DNA of 64,000 nt from Leptotrichia sp. oral taxon 847 (GTDB lineage Bacteria; Fusobacteriota; Fusobacteriia; Fusobacteriales; Leptotrichiaceae), in assembly GCF_001553645.1 (NCBI RefSeq), contig NZ_CP014231.1:1178001-1242000 (forward strand), given 5' to 3'. Below the pieces are notes generated by a model that saw only the letters and a program-made list of their open reading frames with translations, had not been told where the DNA came from and searched no databases. This document shows positions 4,378 to 18,154 of the stretch, piece by piece. The translations under genes were made by a program, and so were the position numbers. Each line of letters opens with the position of its first letter. Position 1 is the stretch's first letter.

Positions 4378-5128
4378 AGAAGAGCTTAAGGAGATGATAG
4401 AACGTTCCCTAACTTTGGGACCTGATGAAACTTATCGTGTGAAAATATTAAAATATCCGAAAAAAATATTATTTATTAACATTAAAGGGGAATATGAAGT
4501 TGAGATTATAAAAAAATCAGAATTGGAAAATTTAGAAAAAAATTTTTCCGGGAAAGAAAAAATTAAAACAAAAGAAATTGTGGAAAACTATTCCAAAGAC
4601 TCAAAAGAGAAAAAAATAATTTCAAAACCTAATTCAATTAAAAAAAATGAATCAACAAGAATTACAGCAGATGCAAATGTTGATAAAATCAGAGGATTTT
4701 TTAAAGAATTTATAGTTAATGCAAAACTGGATATAAAAATTGTCGCAATAAAACGGGAAAGCAGTGACAAATATTTAGTTTTATTGGATGGAAGAGACAT
4801 GAGATACATCATTGGAGAAAAGGGAAACACTCTAAATAATTTTGAATATTTGCTAAGTGTGGTAAAAAGATTTAGAAATATAAGAATTTTAGTGGATTCA
4901 AATAATTATAAGGAAAAGCGGGAAATTTCGCTTAGAGAACTTGCAAGAAAAAAAGGAAGAATAGTACTTTCGACAGGACACACGATAAAATTAAATGCGA
5001 TGTCGGCAAGGGAGCGAAAAATAATTCACGAAGAAATTTCTTTTATGCAAGGACTCAAAACGGAAAGTTTTGGAGAAGAGCCAAAAAGATATTTAGTTAT
5101 AAAAAAATTGGACAATGAAAATGTCTAG
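4343..5128 (+). CDS. khpB: RNA-binding protein KhpB/Jag (Jag_N-KH-R3H)
   Basis: About 261 residues. The N-terminal Jag_N-like part (about 1-50) is followed by a charged linker, a KH domain around RDMRYIIGEKGNTLNNFEYL (about 150-175) with the GxxG loop as GEKG, and a C-terminal R3H domain (RELARKK through SARERKIIHEEI and the ending EEPKRYLVIKK). KhpB/Jag binds RNA with KhpA and affects envelope growth in Gram-positives. An in-frame GTG at 4340 and ATGs at 4343 and 4346 are all possible; GGGAG at 4333-4337 favours an ATG. It overlaps yidC, as is common. Confidence 0.93.
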   Translation: MMEKIVLKSQNEEELKEMIERSLTLGPDETYRVKILKYPKKILFINIKGEYEVEIIKKSELENLEKNFSGKEKIKTKEIVENYSKDSKEKKIISKPNSIKKNESTRITADANVDKIRGFFKEFIVNAKLDIKIVAIKRESSDKYLVLLDGRDMRYIIGEKGNTLNNFEYLLSVVKRFRNIRILVDSNNYKEKREISLRELARKKGRIVLSTGHTIKLNAMSARERKIIHEEISFMQGLKTESFGEEPKRYLVIKKLDNENV

Positions 5129-14169: not shown

Positions 14170-14985
14170 ATGAATGTTGTACAGCTAATTTTGCTGGTAT
14201 TAGTAGCAGCAATAACAGGAATGGGAAGTGTACTTGACGAAAGACAAACTCATCGTCCATTAGTGGCGTGTACTTTGGTTGGTCTTGTACTAGGAAATTT
14301 AAAAACAGGAGTTTTACTAGGTGGTTCACTTGAAATGATAGCGCTTGGATGGATGAATGTAGGAGCCGCAATGGCGCCAGATGCAGCACTAGCCAGTGTT
14401 ATTTCAGCGATACTTGTAATTGTAGGAAAACAGCCAATTGGAGAAGGAATAGCAGTTGCAGTACCGATTGCAGCGGCAGGGCAGGTTCTTACAATTTTTG
14501 TCAGAACAATAACAGTGTTCTTTCAACATAAAGCAGATGATTTTGCAGAAAAAGCTAATTTTAAAGGAATAGAAATGTGTCATTTGGCGGGGCTTTTGTT
14601 ACAGGGGCTAAGAGTTGCAATACCAGCACTTCTAGTTGGTCTGATTGCGGGAACAAGTGCTGTAGAAGGAGCATTGCATGCAATTCCTGAAGTAATTACT
14701 AGAGGATTGCAAATCGCAGGAGGATTTATCGTAGTTGTTGGGTATGCGATGGTTATAAATATGATGGAAGCAAAGGCTTTGATGCCATTCTTCTTCTTAG
14801 GATTCGTAATAGCGGCATTTACAGAATTTAATTTAGTTGGTTTAGGAATTTTAGGATTATGTCTTGCAATACTATATATTCAATTAAATCCTAAATATCA
14901 CGCATCTATTGCATTACCTAGTGAAAAAAGTGGTTCAGGTAGTGGAACTTCAGAAGAAGCTGACGACGAATTGGAAGGACTATAG
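14170..14985 (+). CDS. PTS system mannose-family IIC permease
   Basis: 271 residues, a polytopic membrane protein. The N-terminal VVQLILLVLVAAITGMGSVLDERQTHRPLVACTL region and the following GLVLGNLKTGVLLGGSLEMIALG block are typical of the IIC family (sorbose/mannose IIC). IIC and IID form the sugar channel across the inner membrane. The tail is Ser/Gly/Glu-rich and probably cytoplasmic. TAGGAGGACATAAGA precedes the ATG. The IID gene follows after 12 bases, consistent with coupled synthesis. Confidence 0.95.
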   Translation: MNVVQLILLVLVAAITGMGSVLDERQTHRPLVACTLVGLVLGNLKTGVLLGGSLEMIALGWMNVGAAMAPDAALASVISAILVIVGKQPIGEGIAVAVPIAAAGQVLTIFVRTITVFFQHKADDFAEKANFKGIEMCHLAGLLLQGLRVAIPALLVGLIAGTSAVEGALHAIPEVITRGLQIAGGFIVVVGYAMVINMMEAKALMPFFFLGFVIAAFTEFNLVGLGILGLCLAILYIQLNPKYHASIALPSEKSGSGSGTSEEADDELEGL

Positions 14986-14997
14986 GAGGTAAGAAAA

Positions 14998-15840
14998 ATG
15001 GCAGAAAATAATGTAGAAAAAAAATTAACTGATAAAGATTTGAAAAGCATGTACTGGAGATCAACTACTTTATTGGGTTCATTTAACTTTGAAAGAATGC
15101 AGTCAATGGGATTTTGTGTAACGATGATTCCTGCAATAAAAAGACTTTATTCTAAAAAAGAAGATCAAGCTGCAGCACTAAAAAGACATTTGGAATTCTT
15201 TAACACTCAACCATGGATTGGTTCAACTATAATGGGTGTTACAGCTGCGATGGAACAGGAAAAAGCAAATGGAGCGGACATTGATGATGCAACTATAAGT
15301 GGGATTAAAGTAGGACTTATGGGACCACTTGCAGGGGTTGGAGATCCAATTTTCTGGGGTACATTAAGACCTGTTTTAGCGGCACTTGGAGCATCAATTG
15401 CACTAGCTGGAGGAAATTTATTAGGACCTATACTTTTCTTTTTGGGAATAAATATAGCAAGAGTTTTGACTAGATGGTATGGATTAAAATATGGTTACGA
15501 AAAAGGAACTGAAATCGTTGGAGATATGGAAGGTGGAGTTATTCAAAAATTAACTCAAGGTGCTTCTATATTAGGGCTTTTTGTAATGGGAGCGTTAGTT
15601 TCAAAATGGACTACAATAGATGTGCCGTTAGTAATATCAAAATATAAAGATGCAGCAACTGGAAAAGAAGTTGTAACTACAGTTCAAAGTATACTAGACC
15701 AATTGTTACCAGGGCTATTGGCATTATTGTTGACGTTTGCATGTATGAGCTTATTAAAACGAAAAGTAAATGCTATTTGGATAATCTTTGGATTCTTTGT
15801 AATAGGAATAGTAGGATTCTGGTTAGGAATTTTGCAGTAA
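14998..15840 (+). CDS. PTS system mannose-family IID component
   Basis: 280 residues. The IID signature is clear: the basic start LTDKDLKSMYWRSTTLLGSFNFERMQ, AIKRLYSKKEDQAAALKRHLEFFNTQP (about 55-81) and GLMGPLAGVGDPIFWGTLRP (about 107-126). The C-terminus has three or four membrane spans ending FGFFVIGIVGFWLGILQ. IID is the partner of IIC and is found only in mannose-family PTS permeases. ATAGGAGG precedes the ATG. The next gene starts one base after its stop, so they share an mRNA. Confidence 0.95.
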   Translation: MAENNVEKKLTDKDLKSMYWRSTTLLGSFNFERMQSMGFCVTMIPAIKRLYSKKEDQAAALKRHLEFFNTQPWIGSTIMGVTAAMEQEKANGADIDDATISGIKVGLMGPLAGVGDPIFWGTLRPVLAALGASIALAGGNLLGPILFFLGINIARVLTRWYGLKYGYEKGTEIVGDMEGGVIQKLTQGASILGLFVMGALVSKWTTIDVPLVISKYKDAATGKEVVTTVQSILDQLLPGLLALLLTFACMSLLKRKVNAIWIIFGFFVIGIVGFWLGILQ

Positions 15841-15841
15841 T

Positions 15842-15964
15842 ATGTTTAAAAAAATGATTTCAAAAGTGGAAAAATTTGTAAAAGTTCCTCCGAAGGAAGG
15901 GTATATTAAAAATAGTTCTGTCTTAGTTACTGGACTTATGATTATTGGAATGATTTTATTAAAT
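15842..15964 (+). CDS. Exon 1 of intron-split small membrane protein
   Basis: An ATG directly after the IID stop opens a 41-codon reading frame, MFKKMISKVEKFVK through SSVLVTGLMIIGMILLN, containing one membrane span (about 25-40). Reading on gives a further 11 codons of mobile-element sequence and a stop at 15998-16000. The proposed 5' splice site follows T15964, where TTAAAT pairs with the intron guide sequence. The position as fifth gene of a PTS operon suggests a regulatory or assembly accessory for the permease, but the family is not recognised. Unspliced mRNA would give a truncated 52-residue product. Confidence 0.75.
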
Positions 15965-15976
15965 AATGCAAGAACA

Positions 15977-15996
15977 CTCGCAACTTTAGTCGTGAG
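15977..15996 (+). repeat. Left-end hairpin of the IStron
   Basis: CTCGCAACT and AGTCGTGAG form a 9-bp imperfect stem (one A-C mismatch, one G-U pair) with a TT loop. Subterminal hairpins like this are recognised by Y1 transposases of the IS200/IS605 family. It is located 12 bases inside the inferred left end. Confidence 0.65.
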
Positions 15997-16430
15997 ATGA
16001 ATTGTTTGAGAATTTTAGTAAGCATATAGGGAAACTTGTATGTAGATACAGAAGAAAAACTGTACAACAAAGAAACTGAATTGCTGGGAACTCTTAAAGC
16101 TGGTATAACCACAACATAGTAATCTTACTCATAAGAGGCAAATGTGAAGGTAGCGAAAGCAGAAAAAATATACTAGATGGTGCAAGGTTAAATCCTAAAC
16201 ACTGAGCCATATAAAAAGGCATATAATAGACAATCAGCAGCTAAGCCTGAAAAGGAAAGTTCAACGACTATCCCTCGTGAGGGGAGTACAATACAAGCAA
16301 TTGGTATTGGAAGTGGTTTCGCCTAAGTCCTTGAAATAGGATATGGATAAGATATAGTCTGTGCTTGTTAGAGATAACAAGAAGTTCATAAGAGAACTGC
16401 ATAAGTAGTAGCGCACTTATGTGAACGACG

Positions 16431-16474
16431 CCTCCCACTGTTGTGGGGTTTTAAAAACTTTAAAAATATTTAAA
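16431..16474 (+). repeat. 5' arm of long inverted repeat bracketing tnpB
   Basis: CCTCCCAC (16431-16438) is perfectly complementary to GTGGGAGG (17870-17877). GTGGGG and the following AT-rich stretch to 16474 are complementary, with few mismatches, to 17828-17860. The arm itself also folds locally (CCCAC/GTGGG then TTTT), resembling a terminator. As RNA the two arms would close a stem that loops out tnpB and places the 3' splice site near the intron core. Confidence 0.7.
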
Positions 16475-16500
16475 AATAAATAAAAAACTTTACTTAATTA

Positions 16501-16529
16501 TTGAAAATGTATTAAAAATACGGTATAAT
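16501..16529 (+). promoter_or_regulatory. Internal promoter of tnpB
   Basis: TTGAAA at 16501-16506 and TATAAT at 16524-16529 with a 17-base spacer. The tnpB ATG is 21 bases past the -10 box. It would let tnpB and its guide RNA be made independently of host-gene transcription. Confidence 0.75.
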
Positions 16530-16549
16530 AACCTTATGAAAGTGAGGTG

Positions 16550-17803
16550 ATGTATACGCATTTAACATTAAAACAACAGGTAAAACATCTTAGTAAAAAA
16601 GAGTTTAGAAATTTAAAATATTTATCACATATAGCCAAGAACTTAACTAATGAAGCTATATATAATATTAGACAATACTATTTTAATAAGAAAAAGTATT
16701 TAAGTTATAATGAAAACTATAAAATACTTAAAAATAGTGAGAATTACAAGAAATTAAATTCTAATATGGCACAACAAATTCTAAAAGAAGTAGATGGAAG
16801 TTTTAAATCATTTTTTGGACTTTTAAAACTTGCTAAGAATGGTCAATATGATAATAAAAAAATAAAATTACCTAAATATCTTGCTAAGGATGGTTTTACA
16901 ACTCTTGTTATAGGTTTTGTTAGATTAAAAGATGGTATGCTGATAGTTCCTTATTCAAATTCGTTTAAGAAAACTCATCAGGAAGTTAAAATTAAGCTAC
17001 CACCAGTATTAAAAAACAAGAAAATAAAGGAGATTAGAATAATACCTAAACAACATTCTAGGTACTTTGAAATTCAATATACTTATGAAGTAGAAGAAGT
17101 TCAAAGGGAATTAAATAAAGAAAATGGACTAGGAATAGATTTAGGTATAGATAATCTATGTACTTGTGTAACTAATAATGGAGCATCATTTTTAATAGAT
17201 GGTAGGAAATTAAAATCAATAAATCAATACTATAACAAGATAAATGCAAAATTACAAAGCATAAAAGATAAGCAAAAGACCTCCCGCACAACATTAAGGC
17301 AAAAGAGAATAGCTAGAAAGAGAAATAATCGTATAGAAGATTATCTTTCAAAAGCAGCAAGAATAATTGTAAATTATTGTCTTAATAATGATATAGGAAA
17401 ACTAGTTCTAGGGTACAATGAAGATTTTCAAAGAAATTCAAATATAGGAAGTATAAATAATCAAAATTTTGTAAATATACCATATGGAAAAATAAGAGAT
17501 AAATTACAATATCTATGTAAACTATATGGAATAGAATTCAAGCTACAAGAAGAAAGTTATACATCAAAAGCAAGTTTCTTTGATGGAGATGAAATCCCAA
17601 TATACGATAAAGAAAATCAAAAAGAACATATATTCAGTGGAAAAAGAATAAAAAGAGGACTATATCAAACAAGTAAAGGATATCAATTAAATGCAGATTG
17701 TAATGGAGCATTAAATATATTAAGAAAAAGTAAAGTTGTGGATTTAAGTATCCTATACAATAGAGGTGAGCTGAACACACCTAAAAGAATAAGGATAGCA
17801 TAG
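16550..17803 (+). CDS. tnpB: TnpB RNA-guided endonuclease of IS605-like element
   Basis: 417 residues. The RuvC-like catalytic triad is intact: Asp197 in GLGIDLGIDNL, Glu291 in LVLGYNEDFQ and Asp383 in LNADCNGALNI. The start MYTHLTLKQQVKHLSKKEF is typical. The insert between the second and third motifs (EESYTSKASFFDGDE through GKRIKRGLY) lacks the CxxC pairs of the TnpB zinc ribbon, as in the ribbon-less IS605 OrfB branch. TnpB cleaves DNA guided by an omega RNA made from the element's right end and helps retain the element. GTG 16547 is possible, but ATG 16550 behind GTGAGG is preferred. Predicted active. Confidence 0.93.
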   Translation: MYTHLTLKQQVKHLSKKEFRNLKYLSHIAKNLTNEAIYNIRQYYFNKKKYLSYNENYKILKNSENYKKLNSNMAQQILKEVDGSFKSFFGLLKLAKNGQYDNKKIKLPKYLAKDGFTTLVIGFVRLKDGMLIVPYSNSFKKTHQEVKIKLPPVLKNKKIKEIRIIPKQHSRYFEIQYTYEVEEVQRELNKENGLGIDLGIDNLCTCVTNNGASFLIDGRKLKSINQYYNKINAKLQSIKDKQKTSRTTLRQKRIARKRNNRIEDYLSKAARIIVNYCLNNDIGKLVLGYNEDFQRNSNIGSINNQNFVNIPYGKIRDKLQYLCKLYGIEFKLQEESYTSKASFFDGDEIPIYDKENQKEHIFSGKRIKRGLYQTSKGYQLNADCNGALNILRKSKVVDLSILYNRGELNTPKRIRIA

Positions 17804-17881
17804 GACTATCAAACTTCTTAGAAAATTTTTAAATAATTTTAAAGATTTTAGAACCCCGCGACGTAAGAAGTGGGAGGTTCA
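17804..17881 (+). ncRNA. Likely omega RNA scaffold end at the IStron right end
   Basis: The segment after the tnpB stop ends in a hairpin, GAACC...GGTTC enclosing CCCGCGACGTAAGAAGTGGG. This is the usual position and shape of the omega RNA 3' scaffold in IS200/IS605 elements. The guide would then be the flanking host DNA from about 17882. The arm 17828-17877 is also complementary to 16431-16474, so this RNA and the spliced intron structure compete for the same bases. Exact ends cannot be read from sequence. Confidence 0.5.
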
Positions 17882-18154
17882 GATCCTTTTACAAAGGGCT
17901 ATGGAACGATAATAGCACTATCAGCGGCGTTAATTGTAATGGTTGGACAAAAAATACTGATAAATCAAACAAGAAATGATTTTCGTGATATGTATTATGC
18001 CAAAGATATGTATTTGAAAACTAAAAATACAGAGTATCTGGATTTTATTCTAGCTCGTTCAAAGCAAATGACGAATGATGTGAAAGTTTTGTCAGAAAGG
18101 GCTAAAAAAGAGATAGCAGAACTTATTGAGTTTGTCAAAAAATATAAAAAATAA
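17873..18154 (+). CDS. Exon 2 of intron-split small membrane protein
   Basis: The remaining 93 codons of the interrupted gene, beginning GGSDPFTKGYG if the splice follows G17872. It has a membrane span TIIALSAALIVMVGQKIL and a basic, helical C-terminal domain (NQTRNDFRDMYYAKDMYL through ELIEFVKKYKK). Joined to exon 1 it gives a protein of about 134 residues with two spans and a cytoplasmic tail. A GTG at 17870 without a good ribosome site could otherwise start it. The empty-site protein would read LLNDPFTKGYG or LLNSDPFTKGYG. Function unknown; PTS operon membership suggests a link with sugar uptake. Confidence 0.7.
   Translation, partial: GGSDPFTKGYGTIIALSAALIVMVGQKILINQTRNDFRDMYYAKDMYLKTKNTEYLDFILARSKQMTNDVKVLSERAKKEIAELIEFVKKYKK

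What the first reader, a model, noticed from the sequence alone, without database searches (positions are those of the whole stretch)
15965..17881. IStron with intact tnpB splits a PTS-operon gene; predicted to splice in frame
All four conserved elements of a group I intron (P, Q, R, S) are readable, followed in the same orientation by an intact TnpB gene (Asp197, Glu291, Asp383) with its own promoter. The host gene continues in one open frame on each side (MIIGMILLN / GGSDPFTKGYG). Group I intron plus IS605-type TnpB is the IStron architecture known in Clostridia. I am not aware of one described inside a mannose-PTS operon of a Fusobacterium-like host. The element lets a TnpB-guided transposon sit in a coding gene with limited damage.
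Basis: partly seen in the sequence, partly recalled or inferred. Interest (0 to 1): 0.95.

Follow-up and report, generated by a model that had tools for sequence, protein, structure and literature searches.

The report
Self-splicing transposon in a sugar-transport operon
A small jumping element that carries both an RNA-guided DNA cutter and a self-splicing RNA sits inside a bacterial sugar-transport operon gene; the kind is already known, but dozens of relatives, one of them inside a single-copy replication gene, suggest that its self-removal from messenger RNA works in living cells.

Summary
The finding is real. The element is window 15960-17882 (1923 bp), a group A IStron: a group I intron of IA2 type, then an intact 417-aa TnpB in the same orientation. 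Eight same-genus genomes hold the uninterrupted 129-aa gene, with the exons adjoining at 15959|17883, so exact splicing restores an open 129-aa frame. The intron matches Rfam RF00028 at E=2e-11 (48.6 bits, just under the gathering score of 50); P3 shows compensatory changes.

IStrons are known, also in Fusobacterium and Leptotrichia (PMC4227781, PMC1924603): a new member of a known kind.

New here: of 63 full copies in eight genomes, 57 lie sense inside open frames, 1 antisense, 5 outside; of 20 ribozyme-free elements with similar ends, 18 lie outside. One copy splits the only dnaB of its genome. A TnpA-encoding IS with similar ends lies in the same genome. A 46-bp inverted repeat loops out tnpB. 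No RNA was measured.

The parts
15960..17882 (+). whole IStron (element and predicted intron), 1923 bp, 3' of TTTAT, ending GGTTCAG
   Evidence: empty sites in 8 orthologues; 6 full copies in own genome share these ends
15842..15959 (+). 5' exon of the host gene, 118 nt; last five bases TTTAT (15955-15959) are insertion target and predicted 5' splice site
17883..18154 (+). 3' exon of the host gene, 272 nt with stop; joined gene 129 aa
15955..16022 (+). P1: UUUAU|UAAA (15955-15963) pairs with UUUAGUAAG (16014-16022), U15959-G16018 at the splice site; the loop holds the left-end hairpin (about 15977-15996)
   Evidence: RNAalifold on 63 introns; coordinates
16018..16381 (+). group I intron core (IGS to P9) with P 16079-16090, Q 16232-16246, R 16259-16274, S 16349-16359; P3 16072-16077/16315-16320, P7 16266-16271/16354-16359
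   Evidence: RF00028 E=2e-11; covariation; motif positions
16400..16428 (+). P9.2 (16400-16421) and GAACGA motif (16423-16428) after which the IS part begins
   Evidence: motif position as described in PMC4227781
16430..16477 (+). 5' arm of the inverted repeat that loops out tnpB (46 bp with 17825-17878, -57.6 kcal/mol)
16501..16529 (+). promoter-like site for tnpB (TTGAAA-17-TATAAT)
   Evidence: consensus match only
16550..17803 (+). tnpB, 417 aa from ATG (GTG 16547 also possible)
17825..17882 (+). right end: 3' arm of the inverted repeat, local hairpin (about 17851-17880), terminal G17882 (predicted omega-G); expected 3' end of the guide-RNA scaffold
   Evidence: guide-RNA role inferred from the TnpB family
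14170..15840 (+). mannose/sorbose-family PTS EIIC (14170-14985) and EIID (14998-15840) directly upstream of the host gene
   Evidence: Pfam PF03609, PF03613; EIID precedes the gene in 8 of 8 orthologous loci

Best explanation
A group A IStron. As DNA it is an IS200/IS605-type element without its own TnpA that inserted 3' of TTTAT. In the host transcript the group I intron pairs its guide (GUAAG) with the same UUUAU, cuts there and joins it to the base after the terminal G17882, restoring a 129-aa protein of a mannose-type PTS operon. The long inverted repeat loops out tnpB and brings the 3' splice site next to the ribozyme. TnpB, expected to come mainly from the internal promoter, should be guided by an RNA that ends past the right end and cut the empty site (TTTAT + ATCC...), which keeps the element in place. 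Shown: boundaries, empty sites, frame, intron fold with covariation, TnpB family, distribution of copies. Inferred: splicing in RNA, use of the internal promoter, TnpB cutting, mobilisation in trans by TnpA.
For: Uninterrupted 129-aa gene in 8 same-genus genomes with the exons adjoining. RF00028 at E=2e-11. P3 pairs in 456 of 456 cells, 52 compensatory; P7 456 of 456. S identical in 63 of 63 introns, R in 60 of 63. 57 of 63 copies sense in open frames (68% expected from matched TTTAT sites), while 18 of 20 ribozyme-free relatives lie outside (28% expected); Fisher p=7e-12 at a 60-codon threshold, 3e-10 at 100. One copy splits the only DnaB gene of its genome at profile position 310|311. tnpB intact in 54 of 64 copies, median dN/dS 0.18 over 250 sampled pairs. 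TnpA-bearing IS with a similar left palindrome, right end and TTTAT target in the same genome.
Against: No RNA data. Rfam score just under the gathering score. This copy is in phase 1, the rarest (7 of 57; 169 of 844 null sites), so by the sequence ribosomes read 13 codons past the splice site before TGA at 15998-16000. The copy in dnaB has one broken P4 pair. The sense bias is partly explained by insertion with the replication fork (58 of 62 copies with an assigned fork; fork taken from dnaA and half the contig). Copies and hosts are related and at least three sites are shared, so p-values are nominal. L141 carries an extra G in R yet sits mid-gene.
Confidence: 0.93

Rival explanations
1. An IStron by descent, but this copy splices poorly or not at all: the host gene is lost, or its 3' part is made from a start supplied by the right end (GTG 17870). 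It overlaps with the main reading on what the element is and differs on whether this copy works.
For: An open frame from GTG 17870 runs through the 3' exon; phase 1 insertion lets ribosomes enter the intron; the host gene looks dispensable, since 4 of 12 same-genus relatives (G002, G008, G009, G011) show no match to its 3' exon.
Against: The window copy shows no broken pair in the eight helices tested; the same family sits in single-copy dnaB.
Confidence: 0.15
2. The genomic distribution (genic, sense) reflects where TnpA inserts and which elements my search found, not splicing.
For: 58 of 62 IStrons run with the replication fork, as genes mostly do; ribozyme-free relatives were found only through similarity to the left end, with 40 candidates scored per genome; copies share ancestry.
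Against: The ribozyme-free relatives have similar ends and, in 19 of 20, the same TTTAT target, and 16 of 19 with right end and fork assigned also run with the fork, yet 18 of 20 lie outside genes against 28% of matched sites.
Confidence: 0.2
3. An ordinary IS605-type insertion beside a ribozyme relic that has no function.
For: Element without TnpA; Rfam score below the gathering score.
Against: Near-invariant catalytic core in 63 introns, with compensatory changes; P1 uses the insertion target itself.
Confidence: 0.02

Closest known systems
Group A IStrons (CdISt1 of C. difficile, FnISt1/FnISt2 of Fusobacterium nucleatum, LbISt1 of Leptotrichia buccalis; Tourasse et al. 2014, PMC4227781)
   Same: TTTAT is one of three published group A targets; 3' end TCAG; intron with P7.1/P7.2 and P9.1/P9.2; IS part after GAACGA; ORF B without intact ORF A; no target duplication; ORF region flanked by an inverted repeat.
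   Different: Inverted repeat of 46 bp, A+U-rich beyond its G+C-rich base (published for group A: 6-10 bp, balanced). My measure gives 25-27 pairs for a second IStron type in this genus, so part of the gap may be the way of counting. LbISt1 ORF B is nearest ISBth17; this TnpB is another lineage. FnISt2 (ORF B nearest ISSoc6, 37%) may be closer; its sequence was not compared.
TnpB RNA-guided endonucleases of IS200/IS605 elements
   Same: NCBIfam NF040570 over its cut-off; Asp197 and Asp383 conserved.
   Different: No CxxC zinc finger at the C-terminal end; the conserved glutamate is at 335, resembling the alternative position described for Fanzors and some TnpBs (PMC10711439, passages); with DLG, not DPG, at RuvC1.
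Group I introns, Rfam RF00028
   Same: Full-length model match, P1-P9 core, compensatory P3.
   Different: 48.6 bits, just under the gathering score of 50; the tnpB unit lies between P9.2 and the 3' splice site.
IStrons on Paenibacillus larvae and Finegoldia magna plasmids
   Same: TnpB 69% and 67% identical, R and S motifs upstream, end GGTTCAG.
   Different: Not listed in the species table of PMC4227781; P and Q were not found upstream in the Finegoldia copy.

Membership tests
Group A IStron | insertion 3' of TTGAT, ATTAT or TTTAT without target duplication | tested here: met
   TTTAT at 15955-15959; nothing duplicated against 8 empty sites, 5 of which keep TTTAT
Group A IStron | 3' terminus TCAG | tested here: met
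   17879-17882; TTCAG in all 63 full copies, found with a right-end pattern allowing two mismatches
Group A IStron | IA2-type group I intron at the 5' end, with P7.1/P7.2 and extended P9 | tested here: met
   P9.0 not examined; the P7.1 slide control is not discriminating
Group A IStron | IS200/IS605-type ORF downstream of P9.2 after GAACGA | tested here: met
   GAACGA 16423-16428; TnpB by PF01385 and NF040570
Group A IStron | short (6-10 bp), balanced inverted repeat around the ORF (descriptive in the survey, not used to define the group) | tested here: not met
   46 bp, -57.6 kcal/mol
Group A IStron | self-splicing that restores host mRNA | not testable with these tools
   indirect only: frame and empty sites, dnaB, distribution
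Group I intron | curated Rfam gathering score | tested here: inconclusive
   48.6 bits against 50, E=2e-11
Group I intron | P3/P7 pseudoknotted core with covariation | tested here: met
   P3 456 of 456 cells, 52 compensatory; P7 456 of 456 without compensatory change
TnpB RNA-guided endonuclease | family profile | tested here: met
   NF040570, 207 bits against 100
TnpB RNA-guided endonuclease | three RuvC acids | tested here: inconclusive
   Asp197, Asp383 and Glu335 invariant in 7 lineage members, Glu291 not; which Glu is catalytic is inferred
TnpB RNA-guided endonuclease | guide-RNA-directed DNA cleavage | not testable with these tools
   no activity data

The most novel reading that the evidence does not exclude
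In this lineage one long-range helix divides the element's RNA between two fates. Host-gene transcripts contain both arms of the 46-bp repeat, fold the right end into the intron and splice, so that even a single-copy replication gene tolerates the element. Transcripts from the internal tnpB promoter lack the 5' arm, keep the local right-end hairpin and give guide RNA for a TnpB with a shifted catalytic glutamate. Mobility comes in trans from the TnpA of a different IS with similar palindromes, which would explain how TnpA-less IStrons spread.
Probability: 0.35. Interest if true: 0.7.

Novelty: new member of a known kind. Interest (0 to 1): 0.5.

Why it matters
IStrons put a ribozyme and an RNA-guided nuclease on one transcript. 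This genus offers a ready comparison: elements with similar ends and target, with and without the ribozyme, in the same genomes; a single-copy replication gene that must be spliced for the cell to replicate, unless DnaB is made in some unseen way; and a candidate trans-acting TnpA. Two questions become directly testable: does splicing in vivo suffice for essential functions, and what mobilises IStrons without intact ORF A (left open in the discussion of PMC4227781, part 1 read).

Tried and rejected
Rfam scans of the whole window at gathering score and of 2.6 kb at E<=10 found no intron; the 501-base scan did, so the misses reflect filters and a score just under the threshold. phmmer against solved structures found no TnpB relative at E<=0.001. 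The one genome-contig scan gave two relatives and one viral-contig scan gave one, so no record names the organism; 'Leptotrichia' is my inference. 'Sense bias alone shows splicing' was rejected, because orientation with the replication fork explains much of it. 'Phase 0 preferred' was not supported: phases 0, 1, 2 are 18, 7, 32 of 57 against 357, 169, 318 of 844 null sites. Vertical inheritance of copies at shared sites was not supported by element similarity at two of three shared sites, but all copies are nearly equidistant, so this is weak. The inverted repeat shows few compensatory changes, and arms swapped between copies pair as well as own arms (-49.6 against -50.1 kcal/mol), so copy-specific coevolution is not shown. 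A first check of catalytic columns was off by one residue and was repeated. No structure was predicted.

Rows dropped and limits: the ORF-less IStron L092 is outside the 63; L145 is among the 63 but not in the intron alignments; three left ends without a right end (G000 1168065, G007 823992, G048 31682) and the two G055 IS were left out of the test (with the latter, 22 ribozyme-free elements: 19 outside, 2 sense, 1 antisense at 60 codons). One of the 20, L172, has only a mismatched right end (GTTTAG), and L158 sits after TTTGT. The one antisense IStron (L124) lies 1 nt from the end of that frame; among the five 'outside', L086 lies between a ribosome-binding site and a start codon, and L144 next to other introns. 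Counts are lower bounds, since at most 40 candidates per genome were scored. Of 57 sense hosts one exon each of 50 was searched; 39 of 50 matched an NCBIfam family at E<=1e-5, many under the family cut-off, as expected of fragments.

Full report
WHAT IS THERE. The window is 1178001-1242000 of a 2.19-Mb single-contig genome. After EIIC and EIID genes of a mannose/sorbose-family PTS comes a short gene that starts at 15842 and is interrupted at 15959|15960. The element is 15960-17882, 1923 bp. It begins TAAATAATGC after TTTAT and ends GGTTCAG. The own genome holds six full copies, the other five 89-93% identical to this one, and several fragments.

EMPTY SITE AND FRAME. Of 60 genomes searched with the 3' exon (own included), 9 match: the own genome and 8 of 12 same-genus relatives. 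In blastn the 118-nt 5' exon and the 272-nt 3' exon abut exactly in 6 of these 8; in the other two the alignment stops 2 or 6 nt short. Read at fixed offset, all 8 genes are 129 aa, EIID lies directly upstream, and the junction reads GM[IV]LYP[FL]TKGYG. Five of the 8 sites keep TTTAT. Joining the window's exons gives 129 aa without a stop.

THE INTRON. P, Q, R and S are present. RF00028 matches 16018-16381 over its full length, 48.6 bits, E=2e-11, just under the gathering score of 50. RNAalifold on 63 introns finds P1 as UUUAU|UAAA paired with UUUAGUAAG, and helices at P2, P4, P7.1, P7.2, P8 and P9. I added a second intron type, about 73-77% identical. On 76 distinct cores (10 classed as the second type by the script; 15 carry alternative P3 pairs) the P3 pseudoknot pairs in 456 of 456 cells with 52 compensatory cells; P7 in 456 of 456, with none; P4 529 of 532, none; P8 342 of 365, 84; P9 532 of 532, 29; P7.2 448 of 456, 36; P9.1 375 of 375, none; P9.2 514 of 526, 13. 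Slid controls pair in 0-73% of cells for these, but P7.1 (302 of 304) slides almost as well as it pairs (0.71-0.98), so it is uninformative. S is identical in 63 of 63 introns and R in 60 of 63 (substitutions in L071 and L092, an extra G in L141).

THE TNPB. tnpB is 417 aa from ATG 16550, matching OrfB_IS605 and Cas12f1-like_TNB and NCBIfam guided_TnpB. Asp197, Glu291 and Asp383 are constant in 54 of 54 intact genus copies. Among 7 members of the lineage, Glu291 is replaced by V, K, P or D in four, while Asp197, Glu335 and Asp383 are invariant, with some other acids. PMC10711439 (passages) describes TnpBs and Fanzors whose RuvC2 glutamate is shifted from about 50 to six residues before the zinc finger. 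Residues 291 and 335 are 50 and 6 residues before Ala341, where I infer the first zinc-finger cysteine was; this lineage lacks the CxxC pairs. Glu335 is therefore the likelier catalytic residue, by inference. 54 of 64 copies have an intact tnpB; median dN/dS is 0.18 over 250 sampled pairs.

COPIES. Strong hits to the 606-bp intron query (over 500 bits) occur in the own genome, 6 of 12 same-genus relatives and one genome of another genus of the family. I fetched the strong hits and found 63 full-length copies in eight genomes: 28 in G007, 15 in G003, 6 in the own genome, 4 in G002, 3 each in G004, G005 and G022, 1 in G009. All 63 have TTTAT before and TTCAG at the end; the search patterns contained these ends but allowed mismatches.

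A NATURAL COMPARISON. 57 of 63 lie sense inside an open frame of at least 60 codons, 1 antisense, 5 outside. TTTAT sites on the same strand in the same flanks give 660 sense, 114 antisense and 194 outside of 968. Of 20 ribozyme-free elements with similar ends (9 MITE-like of 255-320 bp, 9 of exactly 45 bp, 2 IS; 19 of 20 after TTTAT), 18 lie outside and 2 sense, against 172 sense, 91 antisense and 101 outside of 364 null sites. Genic or not, IStron against ribozyme-free: Fisher p=7e-12, and 3e-10 at a 100-codon threshold. Orientation with the replication fork accounts for part of the sense bias (58 of 62 IStrons; fork taken from dnaA, and half the contig), so the genic/non-genic contrast is the stronger evidence. 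PMC4227781 already reports that most IStrons are intragenic (118 of 202) and says IS elements are mostly not (sections 14 and 20 part 1); the matched comparison here goes further. Rows are not independent: sites in nagB (three genomes), one unnamed gene (two) and queA (two) are shared.

HOST GENES. 39 of 50 host exons searched match a named family, among them smpB, recG, metF, ruvB, mutL, mfd, recJ, uvrB, queA, nagB, gmk and dnaB. In G003 the only DnaB gene is split at profile position 310|311, and no other match there reaches the family cut-off; the six other genomes searched each have one uninterrupted DnaB over it. DnaB is essential in bacteria (general knowledge), so that cell should splice the element out precisely, or make DnaB in some unseen way. 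The copy there has one broken P4 pair, against an easy reading. In G007 the only guanylate kinase gene over the cut-off has the element between AT and G of its start codon. Copies with a damaged ribozyme fit in two of three cases: L145 lost much of the ribozyme and sits two codons before a stop, L092 lost one side of P8 and lies between genes; L141, with an extra G in R, sits mid-gene and does not fit unless that gene is dispensable.

INVERTED REPEAT. The stretch after GAACGA pairs with the right end: 46 bp and -57.6 kcal/mol in the window copy, mean -50.1 over 63 copies (range -57.6 to -25.7), shuffled -13.5 (sd 3.2); arms swapped between copies give -49.6. Conservation of the 5' arm falls where complementarity ends. 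PMC4227781 gives 6-10 bp for group A and long A+U-rich repeats for group B. In my measure the second IStron type has 25-27 pairs and about -30 to -32 kcal/mol, so the contrast with the survey is partly a matter of counting. The right end can also form a local hairpin (-11.6 kcal/mol). Since the best promoter-like site (16501-16529) lies downstream of the 5' arm, RNA from it could not form the long helix. This suggests how splicing and guide-RNA production could be divided; it is inference.

WHO MOVES IT. No TnpA is in the element. The own genome has nine Y1 transposase matches. One belongs to an IS (L176) with TnpA of 133 aa and a 475-aa TnpB, a left palindrome like that of the IStrons, a right end finishing GAGGTTCAG, and TTTAT before it. 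PMC4227781 judged mobilisation in trans by another IStron unlikely, as no IStron with intact ORF A was present; a separate IS is an alternative. Against it, G003 has only one Y1 match, with another frame length, yet 15 IStrons.

KNOWN OR NEW. IStrons in Fusobacteria are published (PMC1924603, passages; PMC4227781), including LbISt1 of Leptotrichia buccalis with an ISBth17-like ORF B. Searches for IStron with other terms and alone, and for Leptotrichia with group I intron, listed no paper on an IStron in this host gene; the library lacks most subscription papers, and supplements were not read. A 2024 Science paper on a C. botulinum IS607 IStron, in which splicing and guide RNA compete, is recalled and was not seen. 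I file this as a new member of a known kind.

Noticed in passing
L159, L161-L163, L165-L169 (G002, G003, G005): Nine copies of an exactly 45-bp element: left end fused to right end at the shared hairpin, each after TTTAT, 8 of 9 outside open frames of 60 codons or more. Solo-hairpin scars or minimal mobile units.
   Followed up: partly
L007, L151-L156, L158, L160: Nine MITE-like elements of 255-320 bp with both ends but no ribozyme; the first base is G in 7 of 9, where full IStrons have T.
   Followed up: partly
L144 2980-6622 (G003); similar L097, L098: A gene read by eye as precorrin-6A reductase holds two ORF-less TTGAT-targeted mini-IStrons and, next to them, a full TTTAT IStron.
   Followed up: partly
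L146-L150 (G007): A second IStron type with a 367-aa cysteine-bearing TnpB; one copy splits a gene that by eye resembles mannose-1-phosphate guanylyltransferase.
   Followed up: partly
L002, L090, L062, L068, L133, L072, L076: DNA repair and replication genes recur among hosts (recG, ruvB, mutL, mfd, recJ, uvrB, dnaB); enrichment not tested.
   Followed up: no
L067, L075, L129, L138: Four IStrons split a start codon as AT|G, so that this start exists only in spliced RNA.
   Followed up: no
L065, L073, L084 (nagB); L074, L091: IStrons at the same site in different genomes are not each other's nearest relatives, although 60-nt flanks are 80-100% alike.
   Followed up: partly
L188 (Paenibacillus larvae plasmid), about 2043-2300 and 4500-4760: Two IStron-type introns on one plasmid; no TnpB gene is listed after the second within the fetched stretch.
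   Followed up: no
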